A program made the translations under genes and the position numbers. The notes beneath the pieces were generated by a model that was not told where the DNA came from, made no database searches, and saw only the letters and a list, made by a program, of their open reading frames with translations. Below, piece after piece: positions 6,625 to 64,000 of a stretch of 64,000 nucleotides of DNA (positions are counted from its first letter, which is position 1; every line of letters starts with the position of its first letter). This stretch comes from Fulvivirga lutea (lineage in GTDB: Bacteria > Bacteroidota > Bacteroidia > Cytophagales > Cyclobacteriaceae). Location: contig NZ_CP070608.1 of the NCBI RefSeq assembly GCF_017068455.1, forward strand, positions 310,001 to 374,000. The letters run 5' to 3'.

Positions 6625-7206
6625 TTAATTTTTGAATCCCATTTTGTTAGCGTAATCTCTTAATTTTTCTTTGAGAAGGTTTCGTGCCCTGTGCAATCTT
6701 GATCTAACCGTACCAATGGGAATATCAAGAATTTTTGCCATCTCATCGTATTTAAAACCTTCTAAGTCACATAAAATAATTACCGTCCTAAAGTCAACAT
6801 CAAGTGAATTTAGTGCATTGGAGATTTCATCTCCCATCATATCTTGCACCGCCTCTACTCTCAAATCTGAGGTTATAGCTTTATCAACATCGTCTGAGTT
6901 ATAAAAAGTTTCCACCTCTTGATAATCTACCTTAGCAGGCTCTTTACTTTTCTTTCTGAAGTCGTTAATGAAACTATTTTTCATTATTCTGAAAAGCCAA
7001 GCCTTTGCATTAGTACCCTTCTCAAAAGAGTTGATAAATCTGTATGCCTTCAGATAAGTATCTTGTACCAAGTCTTTAGCATCATCTTCATCAAAGGTTA
7101 GGCGAAATGCAAAATTATACATCGCATTAATATGAGGCATGAACTCTTGATCAAAGACTTCTTGCTTTTCCTTATGCGAGTAATTTTGACGTTGTGAATC
7201 GGACAT
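6625..7206 (-). CDS. ECF RNA polymerase sigma factor
   Basis: A 193-residue sigma-70 family protein of the extracytoplasmic-function group. Region 2 lies at about 25-90, with FDEDDAKDLVQDTYLKAYRF and the AWLFRIMKNSFIND segment that contacts the -10 element. Region 4 is at about 135-185, with LDVDFRTVIILCDLEGFKYDEMA and the helix-turn-helix IPIGTVRSRLHRAR. It heads a six-gene minus-strand run and is followed by its presumed anti-sigma factor. A short palindrome lies 35 bases upstream of the start codon. The regulon is unknown. The closest named type would be SigR/RpoE-like. Confidence 0.93.
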   Translation of the reverse strand: MSDSQRQNYSHKEKQEVFDQEFMPHINAMYNFAFRLTFDEDDAKDLVQDTYLKAYRFINSFEKGTNAKAWLFRIMKNSFINDFRKKSKEPAKVDYQEVETFYNSDDVDKAITSDLRVEAVQDMMGDEISNALNSLDVDFRTVIILCDLEGFKYDEMAKILDIPIGTVRSRLHRARNLLKEKLRDYANKMGFKN

Positions 7207-7240
7207 TAGGGATCAAAAATAATAATAATGGACTGATTAA

Positions 7241-7254
7241 TGAGGTGAACCTCA
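7241..7254. promoter_or_regulatory. Palindrome TGAGGT-GA-ACCTCA upstream of the ECF sigma gene
   Basis: A perfect 6-2-6 inverted repeat located 35 bases upstream of the sigma start codon, in the 149-base gap shared with the divergent kinase gene. The position fits an operator or a site in the 5' leader. No binding protein can be named. Confidence 0.4.
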
Positions 7255-7355
7255 CTTTTTTTAACCTATTAACGTTCTGACGGGCAAAGTGTCTATCATT
7301 TTTTAATTTAATATTTCACCTTAGCGATTTATGTCTCTTATTTGACATTGGAAGA

Positions 7356-8108
7356 TTGACCCATAATAACTTGAAGCAACTGAACAGGTTAAAGTATAAG
7401 AATTGGACATTAATTAGTGCTCCAGATGTAGGTGTTGAAGATGCCAAGGAGTTGTTTCATACTGTCCAGGATTCAAAATTTGAGACCTGTGAAGTGCTTA
7501 AGGATAACCAAAGAAGCGAGGTAAAGCGGATAAAAGTTTCTGACAATGATTTTGTTTTAAAAATTCCGAAAGAAAAGAATTCTCGATTTTGGATTAGATT
7601 TTTAACATTATTCAGAAAAGGGGAAGCTCAAAAGAATCTCAAATCTATGATGATTCTTAAGAATATAGGTGTTAAAACTACTAACCCTATTTTAGCTGCT
7701 GAAAAAAGGTCTTTTGGAATGGTGGTCGATTCATGGCTTTTGTATCAGTTTGTTGATGGCAGATCGTGCCTGAACCAGCCTGAAACTTACAAAAAGGTGA
7801 TTGACACACTTGAGTCCATTCATCAGTATGGGTTCATTCATGGTGACCCTCAAATTAGAAACTTCATTCAGAAGGACTCTGACATTTATGTAATTGATGC
7901 CAACCCTCAGAAGGCTGGCATGACAGGATTTGATTTTGGCTATGAATGGGCTTATTTAAGAAAGAGTGACAAAGGCATTCAGCCAATTCTTGATGATCTG
8001 ATAGATTCCAAATGGTACAAGTTCGCTATTTGGTATGATAAAGTTGATCGAAAATTGGCGAGGCTTAGAAAAAGGGTGAAAAAGGTGTTTGGTGTTAAAT
8101 CTTCTTGA
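7356..8108 (+). CDS. WaaP/Kdo-kinase-like (RIO-like) small-molecule or LPS kinase
   Basis: A 250-residue protein with the protein-kinase-like fold of LPS kinases. Visible motifs are the FVLKI lysine (K69), the catalytic-loop HGDPQIRNF (His162-Gly-Asp164, Asn169) and VIDANP (Asp181) as the metal-binding DFG equivalent. The family phosphorylates lipid-A-core heptose or Kdo. A role in surface-glycan modification is suggested by the convergent glycosyltransferase cluster immediately downstream, whose 3' end overlaps by 14 bases. The start is uncertain: the first usable codon is TTG at 7356 and the frame stays open upstream without ATG. Another TTG lies at 7371. Confidence 0.75.
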   Translation: MTHNNLKQLNRLKYKNWTLISAPDVGVEDAKELFHTVQDSKFETCEVLKDNQRSEVKRIKVSDNDFVLKIPKEKNSRFWIRFLTLFRKGEAQKNLKSMMILKNIGVKTTNPILAAEKRSFGMVVDSWLLYQFVDGRSCLNQPETYKKVIDTLESIHQYGFIHGDPQIRNFIQKDSDIYVIDANPQKAGMTGFDFGYEWAYLRKSDKGIQPILDDLIDSKWYKFAIWYDKVDRKLARLRKRVKKVFGVKSS

Positions 8109-57887: not shown

Positions 57888-59441
57888 ATGGTGCAGGGCG
57901 AGGAAGTGGAGATTGAATCTAAAATAACAGCTGAAGAGATTGAGCAATGTATTGCTATTCTTAATAAGCTCAATTCAGATACAAATCAAATATTTGAAAT
58001 CCCGAAAGACCGAAGGTTAGCTTTAGTGATGGCCGCGGGATTATTTTCACGGCCAAGTAGAGAAGAGTTTTTAAGACGTAAAAAAGAAGCCAAGAAAGCC
58101 GAAAAAAGAAAAATTAGATTGAAAGATAAGAATGCCAGAAATGGAACGGGCATTCGATCAGCCAGAGAAGCAGTTGTTTTTGAAGCACCTAAATTAATTT
58201 CCCTCACTGCGGCAGATCTAGAAACTGTTGAATTAGAATCACCGCGAAATTGCTATGTATGCAAAACCGTTTACACCAAATTGCATCATTTTTATGATAC
58301 CATGTGTACCGAATGTGGTGACTTTAACTATGCGAAGCGATTTCAAACTGCCGATCTTACAAACCAAGTAGCTATTGTAACAGGCTCTCGTTTAAAAATT
58401 GGCTATCATATTACGTTAATGTTGCTCCGTGCAGGAGCTACGGTTGTTGCTACAACCAGATTTCCTGTTGATTCTGCCATTCGATTTTCTAAGGAGAATG
58501 ACTTTAATCTATGGAAACATAGACTTAAAATCCATGGATTAGATTTAAGACACATACCTAGTGTTGAAATTTTCTGCAATTACATCGAACAGCAATATGA
58601 TAGGTTGGACATATTGATCAACAATGCTGCTCAAACAGTGAGAAGGCCGGCAGGTTTTTATCAGCACTTGATGTTAAACGAATCCAAAAGTTACGATCAG
58701 CATTCGGCTGATGTTAAAGATTTATTAGCCGACCATAATGCCTGTATTAATGAATTGAGGTCGCTGAGTGAAGGCTTTACAGATGGCCAGAAAAATTTAC
58801 CTGTAAGCTGGCATGGCAAGCAATTAGGCGTTGGTATCAGCGATTCTGCTCGATTATCTCAAATACCATACAGTATTGATAACTCATTGAAGCTAGAAGA
58901 GGTTTTCCCTGAAGGTAAATTAGATGCAGACCTGCAGCAAGTGGATTTGAGAAAAACCAATAGCTGGCGCTTAAAACTTGGTGAAATTAATACCATTGAA
59001 ATGGTTGAGGTGCAATTAGTAAACTCTGTTGCTCCTTTTGTACTATGCAACCGACTGGCCGATCTAATGAAAAAAGAGAATACGGGACAAAAGCATATCA
59101 TCAACGTTTCGGCAATGGAAGGTAAATTCCATAGGTTCCATAAAGAAGATCGACACCCTCACACCAATATGGCTAAGGCAGCATTAAATATGATGACCCA
59201 TACAGCTGCTTCGGATTTTGCTAAATATGGTATTTATATGAATGCCGTTGATACAGGTTGGGTTACAGATGAAGACCCTGCCGAATTGGCTAAACGCAAA
59301 CAAGAAGTTCATGACTTTCAGCCGCCATTGGATATTGTTGATGGTGCCGCCCGAGTACTTGACCCGCTATTTGATGGAATAAATACAGGCAAACATTGGT
59401 GTGGCCAATTTTTGAAGGACTACCGACCAATCGACTGGTAA
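57888..59441 (+). CDS. Short-chain dehydrogenase/reductase fused to a zinc ribbon
   Basis: A 517-residue fusion. The N-terminal 115 residues are helical and basic ([20 protein letters not shown]). A zinc ribbon follows (Cys122-x2-Cys125 ... Cys140-x2-Cys143). From 160 there is a Rossmann SDR domain ([30 protein letters not shown] with the NNAA motif) with an insertion of about 110 residues. The catalytic Tyr of YxxxK is Thr426 in HTNMAK while Lys430 is kept. This points to an altered mechanism or a non-catalytic role. The stop codon abuts the convergent threonine-aldolase gene. Confidence 0.78.
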
Positions 59442-60461
59442 TTAATTTATGCCTTTTTTGATAATTTGAATGGCCTTTTCCAATTGATCATCATTAAAAT
59501 TCAAATGAGTTACCATTCTAATTTCATCAGGGCCAAAACCAATGGCTAATAGTCCGTTTTCTTTAAACTTTTGAAGCACCTTTTCATTCGATAAATCTTT
59601 TTTGATTTTAAAAATGACAATATTGGTCTCAACAGGATAAACATCTTTAACGAAATCTGCGCTTGAAAGAGCCTCACCTAATTGCTTTGCTCGATCATGA
59701 TCTTCCACCAAACGGTTTATATTATTTTCTAATGCATAAATCCCAGCTGCGGCTAAATAGCCTGCCTGCCGCATGCCACCACCTAAAAATTTACGAACTC
59801 TTCTGGCTTTAGTAATATATTCTCTTTTACCAACCAACATGGAGCCAACAGGTGCGCCCAACCCTTTCGATAAGCAGATGGATATGGTATCAAAATACTG
59901 ACCATATTCTGTAGGTCTTTCCTTAGTTTCTGCTAATGCATTAAATAACCTCGCCCCATCTAAGTGAATTTTCAGGTTGTTTTGCCTCGCTATTAAATGA
60001 AGCGCTTTAATCTCCTCAAGCGTATAGTAAGAACCCCCGCCTTTGTTTACTGTATTTTCTAAACTTAGTAGAGAAGAAATTGGATAGTGGATATCGTCCG
60101 GGTTAATGGCGGCTTCAACATCTTTTGGATTTATCCGGCCTCTATCGCCATCTAATAATTTAAAAGACAGCCCGCTGGTACCTGCTACACCTCCACCCTC
60201 GTATTTGTAAATGTGTGAGCCTTGATAACAGATCACTTCCTCATAGGGTTGAGTGAGCACATGAACGCCAATTTGGTTGGTCATTGTTCCGGATGGACAG
60301 AATATACCTGCTTCGCAGCCAAGCATTTCTGCAGCTTTTTTTTCCAGCATTAAAATTGTTGGATCTTCCCCAAACACATCGTCACCCACCTCTGCAGACA
60401 TCATAGCATCAAGCATTGCCGGTGTAGGCTTGGTTACAGTATCACTTCGTAAATCAATCAT
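59442..60461 (-). CDS. Threonine aldolase, GntG/LtaE-type PLP enzyme
   Basis: A 339-residue fold-type I PLP enzyme of the low-specificity L-threonine aldolase family. Characteristic segments are IDLRSDTVTKPTPAM at the N-terminus, GDDVFGEDPT near 27-36, IHLDGARLFNA near 165-175, and SKGLGAPVGSMLVG near 196-209 with the cofactor Lys. It cleaves threonine or allo-threonine to glycine and acetaldehyde. Convergent and directly abutting the SDR gene. Confidence 0.9.
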   Translation of the reverse strand: MIDLRSDTVTKPTPAMLDAMMSAEVGDDVFGEDPTILMLEKKAAEMLGCEAGIFCPSGTMTNQIGVHVLTQPYEEVICYQGSHIYKYEGGGVAGTSGLSFKLLDGDRGRINPKDVEAAINPDDIHYPISSLLSLENTVNKGGGSYYTLEEIKALHLIARQNNLKIHLDGARLFNALAETKERPTEYGQYFDTISICLSKGLGAPVGSMLVGKREYITKARRVRKFLGGGMRQAGYLAAAGIYALENNINRLVEDHDRAKQLGEALSSADFVKDVYPVETNIVIFKIKKDLSNEKVLQKFKENGLLAIGFGPDEIRMVTHLNFNDDQLEKAIQIIKKGIN

Positions 60462-60501: not shown

Positions 60502-61185
60502 CTATGCCAATGACTGTACAAGGCCTTTTTTAATATCAGCCCAAATAGGTTGCTGTATGTATTTTTGATTAATCTCTAATTCTATACCCAAGTATTTTTC
60601 TTGAGGGTATTTAGCTCTTAAATAGGTAGTAAACCCGTCATCAGCCCCATTATATGGCATATTAATCATCACTAATAAAGTAGGAAATAGTTCAGCCAAC
60701 TTATCTTTCCACTCATTTGCGAATTTTAATTCTGACTCCACCTTTTCATCACAAAGAATACCAATATCTACCAGCCTTTCAACATTATTTAAAGAAGGTG
60801 TAAATGAGTGGAAGGAGATATGCAGTACAGAATCACCATTGTTTACATACTCGATGATTTTGTCTTCCACTTCATTTCTGTAGGGAAAATAATATTTTTC
60901 TTCAAGTTCCCTCTTGTCCTTATCAGGCAAAACAGAGCTGTATTTCGAGAATAAATCTTGTGCATTGATCGATCGATTCATCTCTATAAGTAGCCTCGAT
61001 ACTTTTTGATAGTACAGAGGCACATCCAGATTTCTGGCTGTATATTTTGCCAAATCCATAGAGCCTGGATCATAGCCTTTATGACTCTTTAAATCTTCAT
61101 CTGCACCCTTAAATAATGAGGCGTACTTAGATGGTATGATATGATCTGCATGCTCACAACTGATCAAAATTTTTCTTGTAGACAT
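60502..61185 (-). CDS. N-formylglutamate amidohydrolase family protein
   Basis: A 227-residue protein of the FGase family (PF05013). CEHADHIIPSKY near residues 10-21, HKGYDPGSMDLAKY near 35-48 and LHISFHSFTP near 119-128 contain the metal- and substrate-binding His/Asp/Ser. The named activity (formylglutamate to glutamate and formate) belongs to histidine degradation, but no hut gene is nearby. Here it is the last gene of an operon with a GCS2 ligase and a RimK-like ATP-grasp, overlapping the former by 22 bases, so a different amide substrate is likely. Confidence 0.85.
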   Translation of the reverse strand: MSTRKILISCEHADHIIPSKYASLFKGADEDLKSHKGYDPGSMDLAKYTARNLDVPLYYQKVSRLLIEMNRSINAQDLFSKYSSVLPDKDKRELEEKYYFPYRNEVEDKIIEYVNNGDSVLHISFHSFTPSLNNVERLVDIGILCDEKVESELKFANEWKDKLAELFPTLLVMINMPYNGADDGFTTYLRAKYPQEKYLGIELEINQKYIQQPIWADIKKGLVQSLA

Positions 61186-62423
61186 ACCTCAAAAAGTTCA
61201 TTGTTATTTAAGCAATCACTCAATTCTCTATAAACTAATCTGATATTGTCGAGCCCATACTGACCATCAAGGGCTTTCACTATTCTTGTTGCCAACGTGC
61301 CCTCATTAATGATAAACTCCAATGTAGGTAAATAAGGGTCTATCATAGTTGGGTAATACTTATTAGTAGCGTTTAAAATATGCCGCCAAACCTCAGAGAC
61401 TTTAGAAGACTTAGCATCTATCCCAAAAACCTTTAAATATTCTGAGTTCTCAATAACAGCATTTTCGCATTCTACAATTGTTTTTTGAAGTATCGCATTT
61501 AAGTCCTCTGTTTCCCATAATTGCTGATTGTGAAAACTGCATGTCTTTTCTTCGACCAGCATCTTTAATGCAGCCACTATTAATGAAACAATTGCCAAAT
61601 CTGCTTGTGGGCATTCCTGAATATCCATAATTCGGATCTCAATACTGCCTCTGTCGAACCTTGCAATGGCTCCTCGTGAGTTTACCCATATTGGATCAAG
61701 AATTTTATCCTCATTGTATTTCTCAATATCGTGAGAGATTTTATCGTAAATGACCTTATGGTACTGTCTTTTAGAGAAAACGCGTTCAGGAATTACCTTA
61801 CCCGTAATTGATGGAATTACCTTCTGGTTCTTCTGGTAATAATCCATTCGCTTATCCAGCATACCAGTATTTTTACCTCCTAGTACGGGAGAACTGGCGG
61901 CTATACCAGGGATAAGAGGTAATATCAGCCTTATTGCAGCATGTAAAGTAGCAAACTCTTCATCATCATAAAATGGTAAGTTTATATGCGTACTCTGCAA
62001 GTTAGACCAGCCATGGCCTTTGCAGTTAAACATTTTATTGTAGCGCTCATACACCTCATTATTATCGTGTGGCCAAAGTTTAGCTTCAGTCTGAGGATCC
62101 ATAAATGGGTGAGCGGCTGTTGGCATTAATTGTGAGTTAAAACCTGCTAAAAGCGTATTAATGTCCTTTACATTCTTATGGAAATGTTCATTTAAGCCGA
62201 CAAGATTTGGATTTGGCTCAGTACATTTCAGCTCAACTACGTGCATTACCAATTCGTTACACCAGGTTATTTCTCCCCGCTCTACATCACTCACATATTC
62301 TCCTGTTACATTTTTAAAAAGCTCATCAGTAATTGGGTTCACTGATAAATCTTCTTTTTTGGCAATCATATATTCCAGCTCAATTCCATAAGCCTGGAAT
62401 AAGTGTAATCTTTTAGTGCTCAT
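61164..62423 (-). CDS. GCS2-type glutamate-cysteine ligase family protein
   Basis: A 419-residue amidoligase of the GCS2 family (YbdK-like), related to glutamine synthetase. The N-terminal GIELEYMIAKK and CNELVMHVVELKCTEPNP contain Glu ligands for metal. WSNLQSTHINLPF near 148-160 and a RFDRGSIEIRIMDIQECPQ segment near 259-277 are also typical. These enzymes form an amide between Glu (or another acid) and an amine with ATP. The gene starts at 62423, overlapping the RimK-like stop codon by 1 base, and ends inside the amidohydrolase gene. Substrate unknown. Confidence 0.85.
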   Translation of the reverse strand: MSTKRLHLFQAYGIELEYMIAKKEDLSVNPITDELFKNVTGEYVSDVERGEITWCNELVMHVVELKCTEPNPNLVGLNEHFHKNVKDINTLLAGFNSQLMPTAAHPFMDPQTEAKLWPHDNNEVYERYNKMFNCKGHGWSNLQSTHINLPFYDDEEFATLHAAIRLILPLIPGIAASSPVLGGKNTGMLDKRMDYYQKNQKVIPSITGKVIPERVFSKRQYHKVIYDKISHDIEKYNEDKILDPIWVNSRGAIARFDRGSIEIRIMDIQECPQADLAIVSLIVAALKMLVEEKTCSFHNQQLWETEDLNAILQKTIVECENAVIENSEYLKVFGIDAKSSKVSEVWRHILNATNKYYPTMIDPYLPTLEFIINEGTLATRIVKALDGQYGLDNIRLVYRELSDCLNNNELFEVCLQEKF

Positions 62424-63865
62424 TACTCTTCAAGTCTTTCGATAAACGTTTCCATTATTTTGGTGTACAAAGCTCCTTTTAATACCTTATCCTCTACACC
62501 TGCATCAATGTTTGGATTGTCATTGATTTCAATTACATAAAATTTTCCGTCATTCTCTTTTATATCAACGCCATACAAACCCTTGCCAATAAGTAAGGTA
62601 GCCTTCAGAGCCATATCAATTAATGCTTTTGGAGCATCTTCTACTGCTAGTGTTTCACTCTTACCATCTTTAGGTTCATTAGCCTGTTTCCAGTTGATAA
62701 TCTGCCAGTGGTTTTGTGCCATATAATATTTGCACACATACAACGGCTTGCCGTTCATAATACCCACCCGCCAATCGTAGGTAGTTGGCATAAATTGCTG
62801 TGCAATTAGTAATTCAGATTTTTGAAAGAGCTCTTTCAAGGTGTCTTTTAGCTCAGATTCATTGGCTACTTTCTTCACTCCTTTTGAAAATGATCCATCA
62901 GGCTGTTTTATTACAAGTGGATAACCAAAGTGACTTGGCACCACCGGAGCATCTTTTCTTATAATATAACTTTCCGGAACGGGTATTTTATTGGCTACCA
63001 ACAACTCATGTAAATACACTTTATTGGTACATCTTAAAATTGAACCGGGATCATCAAAAACAACCAACCCCTCTGCCTCTGCTTTTTTGGCAAAACGATA
63101 GGTATGATGGTTTACATTGGTAGTTTCCCTGATGAATAAAGCATCAAATTGTACCAGCTTACCAAAATCGTTTTTAGTGATTATTTCTGTGTTAAAGCCT
63201 AGCTTATCAGCTGCAGCAATAATTTTTTGTAATGCTTGCGGCCCGGATGGTGGATAGGGATCATCCGGATTTATCATTAACGCCAGGTCATATTTTTTTC
63301 GGCTATATTGCTTCCTTACAATACGTTTCCCTGTTATGTAAAAGTGTAGAGCTTCCTGAAGTTTATTAAAGGCACCGTCATTTAAATCTTTCAAATGCAA
63401 TGGTTTTAATGTATGAAGCTGCCATTTCTCTTTCTTTGAAAACGTTGCCTGAATAATTGGCACCTGAAACAGGTTGAATAATAGTATGCCCAGTTTAGAA
63501 AATTGGGTATCATCAACCTGTCCAAAGAAAATGTTAATGGAGATTTTAGCTTCAGTAACGCTCTTTAAACTATTTTGAATCAAGGCATCGAATTCTTCGG
63601 CATCATCTTTAATAAGTGAAGGGAAGCGGAAATCCTGAAGGGTTGTAATTTCTGGAATTACCTTGTGTGATCGTGCCTCAGCCAAAAGGGACACGTAGTA
63701 TCCCAAACTTTGGTATTGATGCGATCTGCATAAATTAACAATCTTAAATGCTCCTTTATCCTGATATTCCGGTTTGCTAAAATATTCTGAAGGTGAAATA
63801 ACTGTTGCGCCTTCAGCAGTAATTTTCCACTTTTCCGGATTTTCGGTTATAATGAGTTTAGGCAT
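62423..63865 (-). CDS. RimK-like ATP-grasp ligase with N-terminal RLAN-like domain
   Basis: A 480-residue protein. The N-terminal 180 residues resemble the RLAN domain fused to RimK-like ATP-grasps (KIVNLCRSHQYQSLGYYVSLLAEARS). The C-terminal 290 residues form the ATP-grasp: GYPLVIKQPDGSFSKGVKKV with the ATP-binding Lys, LIAQQFMPTTYDWRVGIM, KGLYGVDIKENDGKFYVIEINDNPNIDAG with Mg-binding Glu and Asn. RimK-type enzymes add amino acids to a carboxylate. It is the first gene of the coupled three-gene operon. A long inverted repeat lies upstream. Confidence 0.88.
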   Translation of the reverse strand: MPKLIITENPEKWKITAEGATVISPSEYFSKPEYQDKGAFKIVNLCRSHQYQSLGYYVSLLAEARSHKVIPEITTLQDFRFPSLIKDDAEEFDALIQNSLKSVTEAKISINIFFGQVDDTQFSKLGILLFNLFQVPIIQATFSKKEKWQLHTLKPLHLKDLNDGAFNKLQEALHFYITGKRIVRKQYSRKKYDLALMINPDDPYPPSGPQALQKIIAAADKLGFNTEIITKNDFGKLVQFDALFIRETTNVNHHTYRFAKKAEAEGLVVFDDPGSILRCTNKVYLHELLVANKIPVPESYIIRKDAPVVPSHFGYPLVIKQPDGSFSKGVKKVANESELKDTLKELFQKSELLIAQQFMPTTYDWRVGIMNGKPLYVCKYYMAQNHWQIINWKQANEPKDGKSETLAVEDAPKALIDMALKATLLIGKGLYGVDIKENDGKFYVIEINDNPNIDAGVEDKVLKGALYTKIMETFIERLEE

Positions 63866-63900
63866 AAATATTTTTTGGATGAATGATTAACAAGTTAGCA

Positions 63901-63945
63901 TCATAAGTCATAACTCCAAGCATAATGGAGTTAATCAACTTATGA
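63901..63945. promoter_or_regulatory. Two-part inverted repeat upstream of the RimK-like operon
   Basis: Outer arms TCATAAGT (63901-63908) and ACTTATGA (63938-63945), inner arms AACTCCA (63912-63918) and TGGAGTT (63926-63932), about 35 bases upstream of the ligase start codon. On the minus strand TATGCTTG, a 7-of-8 match to the TAnnTTTG box, lies in the central loop, so a regulator bound here could cover the promoter. Confidence 0.5.
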
Positions 63946-64000
63946 AAAGATACTTTATAATATTGTTTTTCGCTTATTGGGTTGCTCTCTAATGGATCAG

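What the first reader, a model, noticed from the sequence alone, without database searches (positions are those of the whole stretch)
60502..63865. Coupled RimK-like ATP-grasp / GCS2 amidoligase / N-formylglutamate amidohydrolase operon
Three genes overlap (1 and 22 bases) and encode two different amide-forming ligases and one amide-cleaving enzyme. The ligase has an RLAN-like N-terminal domain, known from ATP-grasp neighbourhoods predicted to make unusual peptides or protein tags. No hut (histidine) genes are near the amidohydrolase, so a role in histidine degradation is unlikely. The set looks like a make-and-remove pathway for a Glu-containing amide or a modified protein/metabolite. The product is unknown.
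Basis: partly seen in the sequence, partly recalled or inferred. Interest (0 to 1): 0.75.

Follow-up and report, generated by a model that had tools for sequence, protein, structure and literature searches.

The report
Four-gene amide ligase and hydrolase cassette
Two enzymes that build amide bonds and two that look able to cut them are encoded together as a compact gene set that recurs in the same order in many distantly related bacteria, which points to a shared but still unidentified glutamate-containing product or protein modification.

Summary
The three genes lie where stated, with 1- and 22-base overlaps. A fourth gene, a C39-like cysteine peptidase, overlaps the first ligase by 8 bases and is cut by the window edge. 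Order: C39-like / RLAN-ATP-grasp / GCS2 / FGase-like. In a 392-genome phylum sample, 46 have RLAN; 31 of these have an unfused ligase, and beside it all 31 have this GCS2, 27 the C39-like gene and 22 the FGase-like gene. Conversely, these GCS2, C39-like and FGase-like subfamilies adjoin the ligase in 31 of 32, 27 of 27 and 22 of 25 genomes. Of the 80 best named relatives, 39 carry all four. Most remaining ligases come with a GNAT acetyltransferase and no GCS2. The genome's hut-type FGase is a different gene beside hutF. I read the set as a two-ligase pathway for a Glu-containing amide, with the C39-like and FGase-like enzymes trimming or reversing it; substrate and product are unknown. The general kind was predicted in 2009 (recalled; paper not held). 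The FGase link and the GNAT-or-GCS2 alternation may be new, but I could not check that paper.

The parts
63858..64000 (-). 3' end of a C39-like cysteine peptidase gene (239 aa; the whole gene is G000 373858-374577), first gene of the operon, overlapping the ligase gene by 8 bases
   Evidence: Pfam Peptidase_C39_2 41.9 bits (cut-off 24); Q15, C21, H178 and D194 invariant in 24 of 24 aligned homologues; 27 of 27 strong subfamily matches in the phylum sample adjoin the ligase
62423..63865 (-). RLAN + RimK-like ATP-grasp ligase, 480 aa
   Evidence: RLAN 145.9 bits; 27 homologues; D434, E446, N448 invariant; AlphaFold2 pLDDT 81; closest PDB folds D-Ala-D-Ala ligases and LysX/ArgX
61164..62423 (-). 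GCS2 (glutamate-cysteine ligase family 2, YbdK-like) carboxylate-amine ligase, 419 aa
   Evidence: 81.2 bits; 27 homologues; G13-x-E15-x-E17 and further acids and arginines invariant; pLDDT 91; best PDB folds 1tt4 and 1r8g YbdK, then plant glutamate-cysteine ligase 2gwc; the only GCS2 match in the genome
60502..61185 (-). FGase-family (PF05013) amidohydrolase of the Atu2144 type, 227 aa
   Evidence: 71 bits; 2odf Atu2144, E 3.9e-34 with the alignment, 3.5e-18 alone; H12, N70, R71, H126 invariant in 20 of 20 and matched in the genome's hutG-like protein

Best explanation
It is a self-contained, horizontally spread cassette for a two-ligase, ATP-dependent pathway that builds a glutamate-containing amide or short peptide, with accessory hydrolases. 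Proposed mechanism: the GCS2 enzyme activates a glutamate carboxylate with ATP and joins it to the amino group of a substrate (a gamma-glutamyl cap). The RLAN-ATP-grasp ligase activates the carboxylate of the same substrate and adds an amino acid there. The C39-like enzyme trims or opens the substrate, and the FGase-like enzyme hydrolyses the Glu amide to reverse or recycle it. In the other main version of the system a GNAT, by acetylating the amino group, takes the place of GCS2. Shown: gene order, near-obligate association, conserved catalytic-type residues, and that the GNAT-type loci lack GCS2. Inferred: the reactions and their order. Unknown: the substrate, and whether it is free or part of a protein.
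For: Operon with overlapping genes. Phylum sample of 392 genomes: GCS2 beside 31 of 31 unfused RLAN ligases and 0 of 14 GNAT-fused ones; the one remaining RLAN genome (L127) is of GNAT-C39 type. Reverse association 31 of 32 (GCS2), 27 of 27 (C39-like) and 22 of 25 (FGase-like). 39 of the 80 named loci have all four in order, in eight groups. Operonic genes outside the four differ from lineage to lineage, judged by eye, so the set stands alone. Of 143 loci, 24 have the family's own GNAT and none of these has GCS2; the GNAT part is nearest to RimI, an N-terminal acetyltransferase, though below that model's cut-off. In the loci read, the FGase-like gene occurs with the GCS2 type and not with the GNAT type, as expected if it removes the GCS2 cap.
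Against: No substrate or product has been seen. FGase is absent from 9 of 31 and C39-like from 4 of 31 GCS2-type operons in the sample, so neither step is essential. 7 of 123 ligases in the tree have neither GCS2 nor GNAT in view; two of these (L170, L198) end at a contig end just past the ligase, but L147, L190, L200 and L206 do not, so the ligase may work without either. The GNAT/GCS2 alternation needs only 3 changes on a quickly made ligase tree, 2 of them forced by well-supported branches, so it rests on few events; L127 sits on a very long branch; the GNAT near L154 is a lone 145-aa, RimI-sized gene 2.3 kb upstream; and two GCS2 loci (L141, L162) have weak generic GNATs nearby. Three FGase-like genes of the subfamily stand without ligases. 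The four proteins' distances correlate only moderately (r 0.46-0.70). FGase could equally remove what the ATP-grasp ligase adds. The C39-like protein could be a transferase.
Confidence: 0.42

Rival explanations
1. Make-and-remove protein tag: the ATP-grasp ligase adds Glu or another amino acid to the C-terminus of a target protein, possibly ribosomal, GCS2 or GNAT acts on its N-terminus, and C39-like and FGase-like enzymes remove the additions, as RimB undoes RimK polyglutamylation of RpsF.
For: Relation to RimK/LysX; GNAT nearest to RimI in the alternative versions, below its cut-off; precedent of RimK and of RimB, which cleaves Glu residues from the RpsF C-terminus (passages of PMC11957791, and of PMC12239564); a DUF155/RMND1 gene directly upstream in some Cytophagales operons and in the GNAT-C39 operon of Sedimenticola.
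Against: The ligase fails the RimK-family cut-off (78 vs 143.4 bits). No likely target gene recurs beside the cassette, judged by eye. The genome's S6 C-terminus shows no Glu tail, though RimK adds its tail after translation, so this says little. DUF155 lies elsewhere in the window's own genome and was found in only 21 of 143 loci, 18 of them Cytophagales-type and one of the other three 7.4 kb away.
Confidence: 0.25
2. Glutathione-like low-molecular-weight compound: GCS2 makes gamma-Glu-X and the ATP-grasp enzyme adds a third amino acid, as GshA and GshB do; the C39-like protein (papain-like fold) might act like phytochelatin synthase and FGase recycle it.
For: Same two enzyme classes in the same logical order; the model's closest folds include plant glutamate-cysteine ligase 2gwc; GCS2 plus ATP-grasp is the core of this operon type (31 of 31).
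Against: The genome has BshC, so it probably makes bacillithiol; GCS2 fails the cyanobacterial GshA cut-off (36.1 vs 249.05) and the ATP-grasp protein the listed glutathione synthetase model (37.1 vs 408); scattered occurrence in distant hosts suggests a specialised rather than a main thiol.
Confidence: 0.15
3. Compatible-solute or storage peptide, analogous to N-acetylglutaminylglutamine amide, made by a GNAT/ATP-grasp protein with peptidases for turnover.
For: GNAT-RLAN-ATP-grasp fusions resemble in layout the N-acetylglutaminylglutamine synthetase (recalled); that model's GNAT part weakly matches one GNAT-C39 protein (33.9 bits).
Against: That model's cut-off is 569 bits, the match is confined to the GNAT domain, and the two GNAT-RLAN fusions scanned did not match it at E 0.001; no asparagine-synthetase-like gene seen in the operons (by eye); carriers also include lake, soil and groundwater bacteria (titles).
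Confidence: 0.08
4. Histidine-degradation or general N-acylglutamate catabolism, with the ligases as chance neighbours.
For: The third protein belongs to PF05013; three subfamily members occur without the ligases.
Against: The association with the ligases is near-obligate (22 of 25); the genome's hutG-like gene is elsewhere beside hutF; a HutH-family gene is at G000 2286299.
Confidence: 0.03

Closest known systems
RLAN ATP-grasp neighbourhoods (Iyer et al. 2009, Mol Biosyst 5:1636; Pfam PF14401) - recalled, paper not held
   Same: RLAN-RimK-like ATP-grasp with GNAT fused to a papain-like peptidase, and GCS2, in the neighbourhood; predicted peptide synthesis (recalled). DUF3335-GNAT fusions are cited to that paper in a passage of PMC10318531.
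   Different: Here the peptidase has no GNAT and matches C39 families, not DUF3335; an Atu2144-type FGase is a frequent fourth member; GCS2 and GNAT are alternatives in the loci read. Whether the 2009 paper already says so I could not check.
RimK / RimB ribosomal S6 modification
   Same: RimK-like ATP-grasp ligase coupled to an enzyme that can undo its product (passages of PMC11957791 and PMC12239564).
   Different: Extra RLAN domain; below the RimK-family cut-off; [quoted passage not shown] an additional GCS2 ligase.
YbdK and glutathione biosynthesis (GshA/GshB)
   Same: GCS2-fold carboxylate-amine ligase paired with an ATP-grasp ligase.
   Different: Below the curated YbdK, GshA and glutathione synthetase cut-offs shown; different ATP-grasp subfamily; extra peptidase and amidohydrolase.
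Atu2144 (PDB 2ODF), PF05013
   Same: Nearest solved relative of the FGase-like protein by sequence.
   Different: Called a hypothetical protein in the PDB; no paper naming it found.

Membership tests
RLAN / RimK-like ATP-grasp (PF14401) | RLAN domain over the curated cut-off, followed by an ATP-grasp domain | tested here: met
   145.9 bits against 25; RimK domain 40.6 against 21
Canonical RimK family (TIGR00768) | score over the curated cut-off of 143.4 bits | tested here: not met
   78 bits
GCS2 (PF04107) | score over the curated cut-off; GCS fold | tested here: met
   81.2 against 21 bits; best folds YbdK 1tt4 and 1r8g
YbdK carboxylate-amine ligase (TIGR02050) or GshA (TIGR02048) | score over the curated cut-offs 176.4 and 249.05 | tested here: not met
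   45.5 and 36.1 bits
N-formylglutamate deformylase HutG (TIGR02017) | match to the hutG model and a hut gene context | tested here: not met
   no NCBIfam match at E 0.001; the genome's other FGase matches (242.1 bits, itself under the cut-off of 278.75) beside hutF
FGase superfamily (PF05013) | score over the curated cut-off | tested here: met
   71 against 28.9 bits
C39-like peptidase (PF13529) | score over the cut-off and Cys/His/Asp set | tested here: met
   41.9 against 24 bits; C21, H178, D194 invariant in 24 of 24; activity not testable
RLAN neighbourhoods of Iyer et al. 2009 | RLAN-ATP-grasp beside GNAT-papain-like peptidase and/or GCS2 (recalled) | tested here: inconclusive
   both layouts found among relatives, but the defining text is recalled and the paper is not held
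Glutathione biosynthesis | product glutathione or gamma-Glu-Cys | not testable with these tools
   needs enzyme assay
N-acetylglutaminylglutamine amide system (TIGR03103) | synthetase over the cut-off of 569 bits | tested here: not met
   33.9 bits, GNAT part only, in L166; no match at E 0.001 in the two fusions scanned. For the window's ligase only the best 25 of 28 NCBIfam matches were shown, and this model is not among them
Anti-phage defence systems (PADLOC) | match to a PADLOC model | tested here: not met
   0 of 4 proteins at E 0.01

The most novel reading that the evidence does not exclude
A widespread but undescribed peptide or protein-end modification: the RLAN-ATP-grasp ligase extends one end of a common substrate, while the other end is capped either by a gamma-glutamyl group (GCS2, removable by the dedicated FGase-like enzyme) or by an acetyl group (GNAT), so that two chemically different but interchangeable caps define one metabolite or tag family shared by many phyla.
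Probability: 0.22. Interest if true: 0.85.

Novelty: new variant of a known kind. Interest (0 to 1): 0.6.

Why it matters
Four enzymes with readable chemistry travel together through at least eight taxonomic groups, in cultured organisms as well as metagenome bins (Thiobacillus thioparus, Pontibacter and Reichenbachiella strains carry all four; the Nitrosomonas example with all four is a metagenome bin). A compound or protein modification of that breadth with no known identity is a real gap. The near-obligate pairing and the GNAT-or-GCS2 alternation give direct, cheap tests of what the substrate is.

Tried and rejected
Hut catabolism: rejected. Defence system: no PADLOC match. Ribosomally made precursor inside the operon: no room in the window's operon, since its genes overlap; a precursor elsewhere is not excluded. 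LysW-type carrier protein: no lysW match in the genome. Ribosomal S6 as obvious target: C-terminus shows no Glu tail; inconclusive. DUF155/RMND1 partner: recurring but mostly one lineage; kept as a lead only. Threonine-aldolase-like gene downstream of the window operon (59442-60461): within 200 bases in L031, L032 and L033, 7-8 kb away in seven others, and not found within the fetched stretch in the remaining nine of 19, so not part of the cassette. A fold for the RLAN domain: the Foldseek matches listed are ATP-grasp ligases covering about 300 columns; RLAN remains without a named fold here. Reading GCS2 active-site residues against plant GCL: not possible, because the sequence profile found no GCS2 structure and Foldseek prints no residue alignment. 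Literature searches for the gene set gave nothing on point; led only to the general passages read. Passages of PMC4431377 and PMC2922099 were seen and not used.

Rows dropped and weak points of the counts: for the ligase tree 20 of 143 loci were left out beforehand (near-duplicates, contig-end copies and the frame-broken L084), leaving 123 rows, 116 labelled. For one search, 14 near-duplicates were left out (129 of 143 loci walked). Named loci are the best 80 of at least 584 relatives, so they over-represent the window's own type. In one search loci marked as contig ends are counted as incomplete, L207 is counted as ligase alone because of an over-extended ORF although one search shows GCS2 and C39-like genes there, and L135, whose FGase-like gene lies two genes further on, is counted as lacking it. 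G234 counts as having GCS2 although its gene reads in two pieces. Groups were assigned by me from record titles; my 'Desulfobacterota (delta)' holds Thermodesulfobacteriota and Myxococcota by the names. An earlier count gave the C39-like gene one base too high; 373858-374577 is right.
Full report
What is there. Pfam confirms RLAN plus RimK-like ATP-grasp, GCS2, and FGase. The window is G000:C1:310001-374000 of a 4.14 Mb single-contig genome. The ligase contig of one congener (G005) has the same length (5084 bp) as the Fulvivirga aurantia contig found in the named collection, so the GTDB genus is probably that of Fulvivirga (inference). Reading past the window edge shows a fourth gene, a C39-like cysteine peptidase of 239 aa, whose stop lies 8 bases inside the ligase gene (Pfam 41.9 bits). 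Upstream of it is a divergently oriented sigma-factor-like gene (label by inspection), so the operon plausibly begins with the peptidase.

Is it more than chance? In the 58 genomes (own genome included), 19 have a full-length homologue of the ligase. All 19 have the GCS2 gene directly downstream, 18 have the FGase-like gene after it (not L046), and 17 have the C39-like gene directly upstream (not found at L049; L041 ends at a contig end). In a phylum sample drawn evenly by the tool (392 genomes in each of the four searches), 46 have RLAN. I read the surroundings of all 46: 31 have an unfused ligase, 14 a GNAT-RLAN-ATP-grasp fusion, and 1 (L127) an ATP-grasp gene with a GNAT-C39 gene (domains checked by Pfam on L105, L124 and L127, the other fusions by profile). 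All 31 have GCS2 adjacent (in G234 it reads in two pieces), 27 the C39-like gene and 22 the FGase-like gene; none of the 14 fusions has any of the three in the fetched stretch. The reverse test is as strong. Taking only the strong matches, which are separated from the rest by wide E-value gaps, the GCS2 subfamily occurs in 32 of 392 genomes, 31 of them beside the ligase (exception G431). The C39-like subfamily occurs in 27, all beside it. The FGase-like subfamily occurs in 25, 22 beside it, the three exceptions being one genus with an orphan gene.

How far it reaches. The scan of named genomes found at least 584 relatives and kept the best 80. Of these 80, 39 carry all four genes in order, 15 lack only the FGase-like gene, 7 have ligase plus GCS2, 4 have C39-like plus ligase, 2 have ligase, GCS2 and FGase-like, and 13 have the ligase without the others; several of the incomplete ones end at contig ends, and L207 is under-counted. 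Full sets occur in a Bacteroidota/Balneolota/Ignavibacteriota group, Pseudomonadota, a delta-proteobacterial group (Thermodesulfobacteriota and Myxococcota), Planctomycetota, Verrucomicrobiota, Nitrospirota, Omnitrophota and Spirochaetota (eight groups as I assigned them from titles). The ligase tree does not follow the organisms: for example the Fulvivirga-type and Marivirga ligases lie in different parts, which suggests horizontal transfer. Pairwise distances of the four proteins over the 39 full sets correlate only moderately (r 0.46-0.70). Operonic genes outside the four vary from lineage to lineage, judged by eye.

Are the enzymes intact? In 27 ligases D434, E446 and N448 are invariant (Mg-site assignment by analogy to RimK, recalled). 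In 27 GCS2 proteins the GxExE motif (G13, E15, E17) and further acids and arginines are invariant. In 24 C39-like proteins Q15, C21, H178 and D194 are invariant. In 20 FGase-like proteins H12, N70, R71 and H126 are invariant and also match the genome's hutG-like protein. AlphaFold2 models (pLDDT 81 and 91) match D-Ala-D-Ala ligases and LysX/ArgX, and YbdK then plant glutamate-cysteine ligase, respectively.

The hut question. The genome has two FGases. The second (L053 7347-8150) hits the hutG model at E 6.7e-72, though below its cut-off, and lies beside a hutF gene that exceeds the TIGR02022 cut-off. A HutH-family gene lies elsewhere. The window's protein is instead closest to Atu2144, PDB 2ODF, which the PDB calls hypothetical.

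GNAT or GCS2. A profile built from the GNAT part of the fusions finds family GNATs in 24 of the 143 loci (18 fusions and 6 others), none of which has the GCS2 gene in the stretch held. Against a strict rule: weak generic GNATs (E about 1e-9) lie near two GCS2 loci, one on the opposite strand; one of the 24 (L154) is a lone RimI-sized gene 2.3 kb upstream and may be unrelated; and 7 of the 123 ligases in the tree have neither partner in view, two of them because the contig ends. On the ligase tree (quick method) the alternation needs three changes, of which two are forced by well-supported branches, against 19.6 for shuffled labels. So the pattern is clear but rests on few events. The GNATs are nearest to RimI, an N-terminal acetyltransferase, though below that model's cut-off (56.6, 68.5 and 75.3 bits against 86.4 in the three proteins scanned). 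This is the basis for proposing that GCS2 and GNAT put different caps on the amino end of a similar substrate, with the ATP-grasp enzyme acting at the carboxyl end. The FGase-like gene was seen with GCS2-type loci and not with GNAT-type loci, which suits removal of the GCS2 product. These are inferences from presence and absence, not shown reactions.

Alternatives. A RimK/RimB-like protein tag is the strongest rival: passages of PMC11957791 and PMC12239564 describe RimB cleaving Glu residues that RimK adds to RpsF. A gene of the DUF155/RMND1 family sits directly upstream of the operon in some Cytophagales and of the GNAT-C39 operon in Sedimenticola, but it lies elsewhere in the window's genome and is mostly a one-lineage pattern (18 of 21 loci). 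A glutathione-like compound is chemically natural, but the genome has BshC and so probably bacillithiol.

What is known. Iyer et al. 2009 predicted, as I recall from the Pfam RLAN entry, that RLAN ligases neighbour GNAT-papain-like peptidases, M20 peptidases and GCS2 and make peptides. The paper is not held; it is cited for DUF3335-GNAT fusions in a passage of PMC10318531. I found no experimental work on this gene set in the searches, which cover openly licensed PMC papers only. I therefore call it a new variant of a known, predicted kind.

Noticed in passing
window 57888-59441: 517-aa SDR-family protein (two adh_short stretches) with a long N-terminal extension holding CxxC-type cysteine pairs, and an interrupted SDR domain; unusual architecture.
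   Followed up: no
window 59442-60461: Threonine-aldolase-like PLP enzyme (NCBIfam GntG family, 393.5 bits against cut-off 230), 40 bases downstream of the FGase-like gene here, but 7-8 kb away in seven of the other loci; not part of the cassette.
   Followed up: partly
L166 5003-5845; L117 5927-6715; L154 5822-6637: DUF155/RMND1 family genes beside the ligase: operonic upstream in some Cytophagales and in the GNAT-C39 version of Sedimenticola, on the opposite strand in a gammaproteobacterial bin.
   Followed up: partly
L209 8160-9437 (G431): The only strong GCS2-subfamily match of the phylum sample without an RLAN ligase; a gene that looks GNAT-like by eye lies upstream at 6794-7696.
   Followed up: partly
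L210, L211, L212: Orphan FGase-like genes of this subfamily in one genus, without the ligases, near ilvE-like and PEP-carboxylase-like genes (labels by inspection).
   Followed up: partly
L213-L217: Five IMG/VR contigs encode relatives of the ligase; not checked whether they are really viral.
   Followed up: no
L127 5068-7082: GNAT-DUF3335 protein overlapping an ATP-grasp gene whose RLAN-like part is a separate upstream ORF; a third layout of the system.
   Followed up: partly
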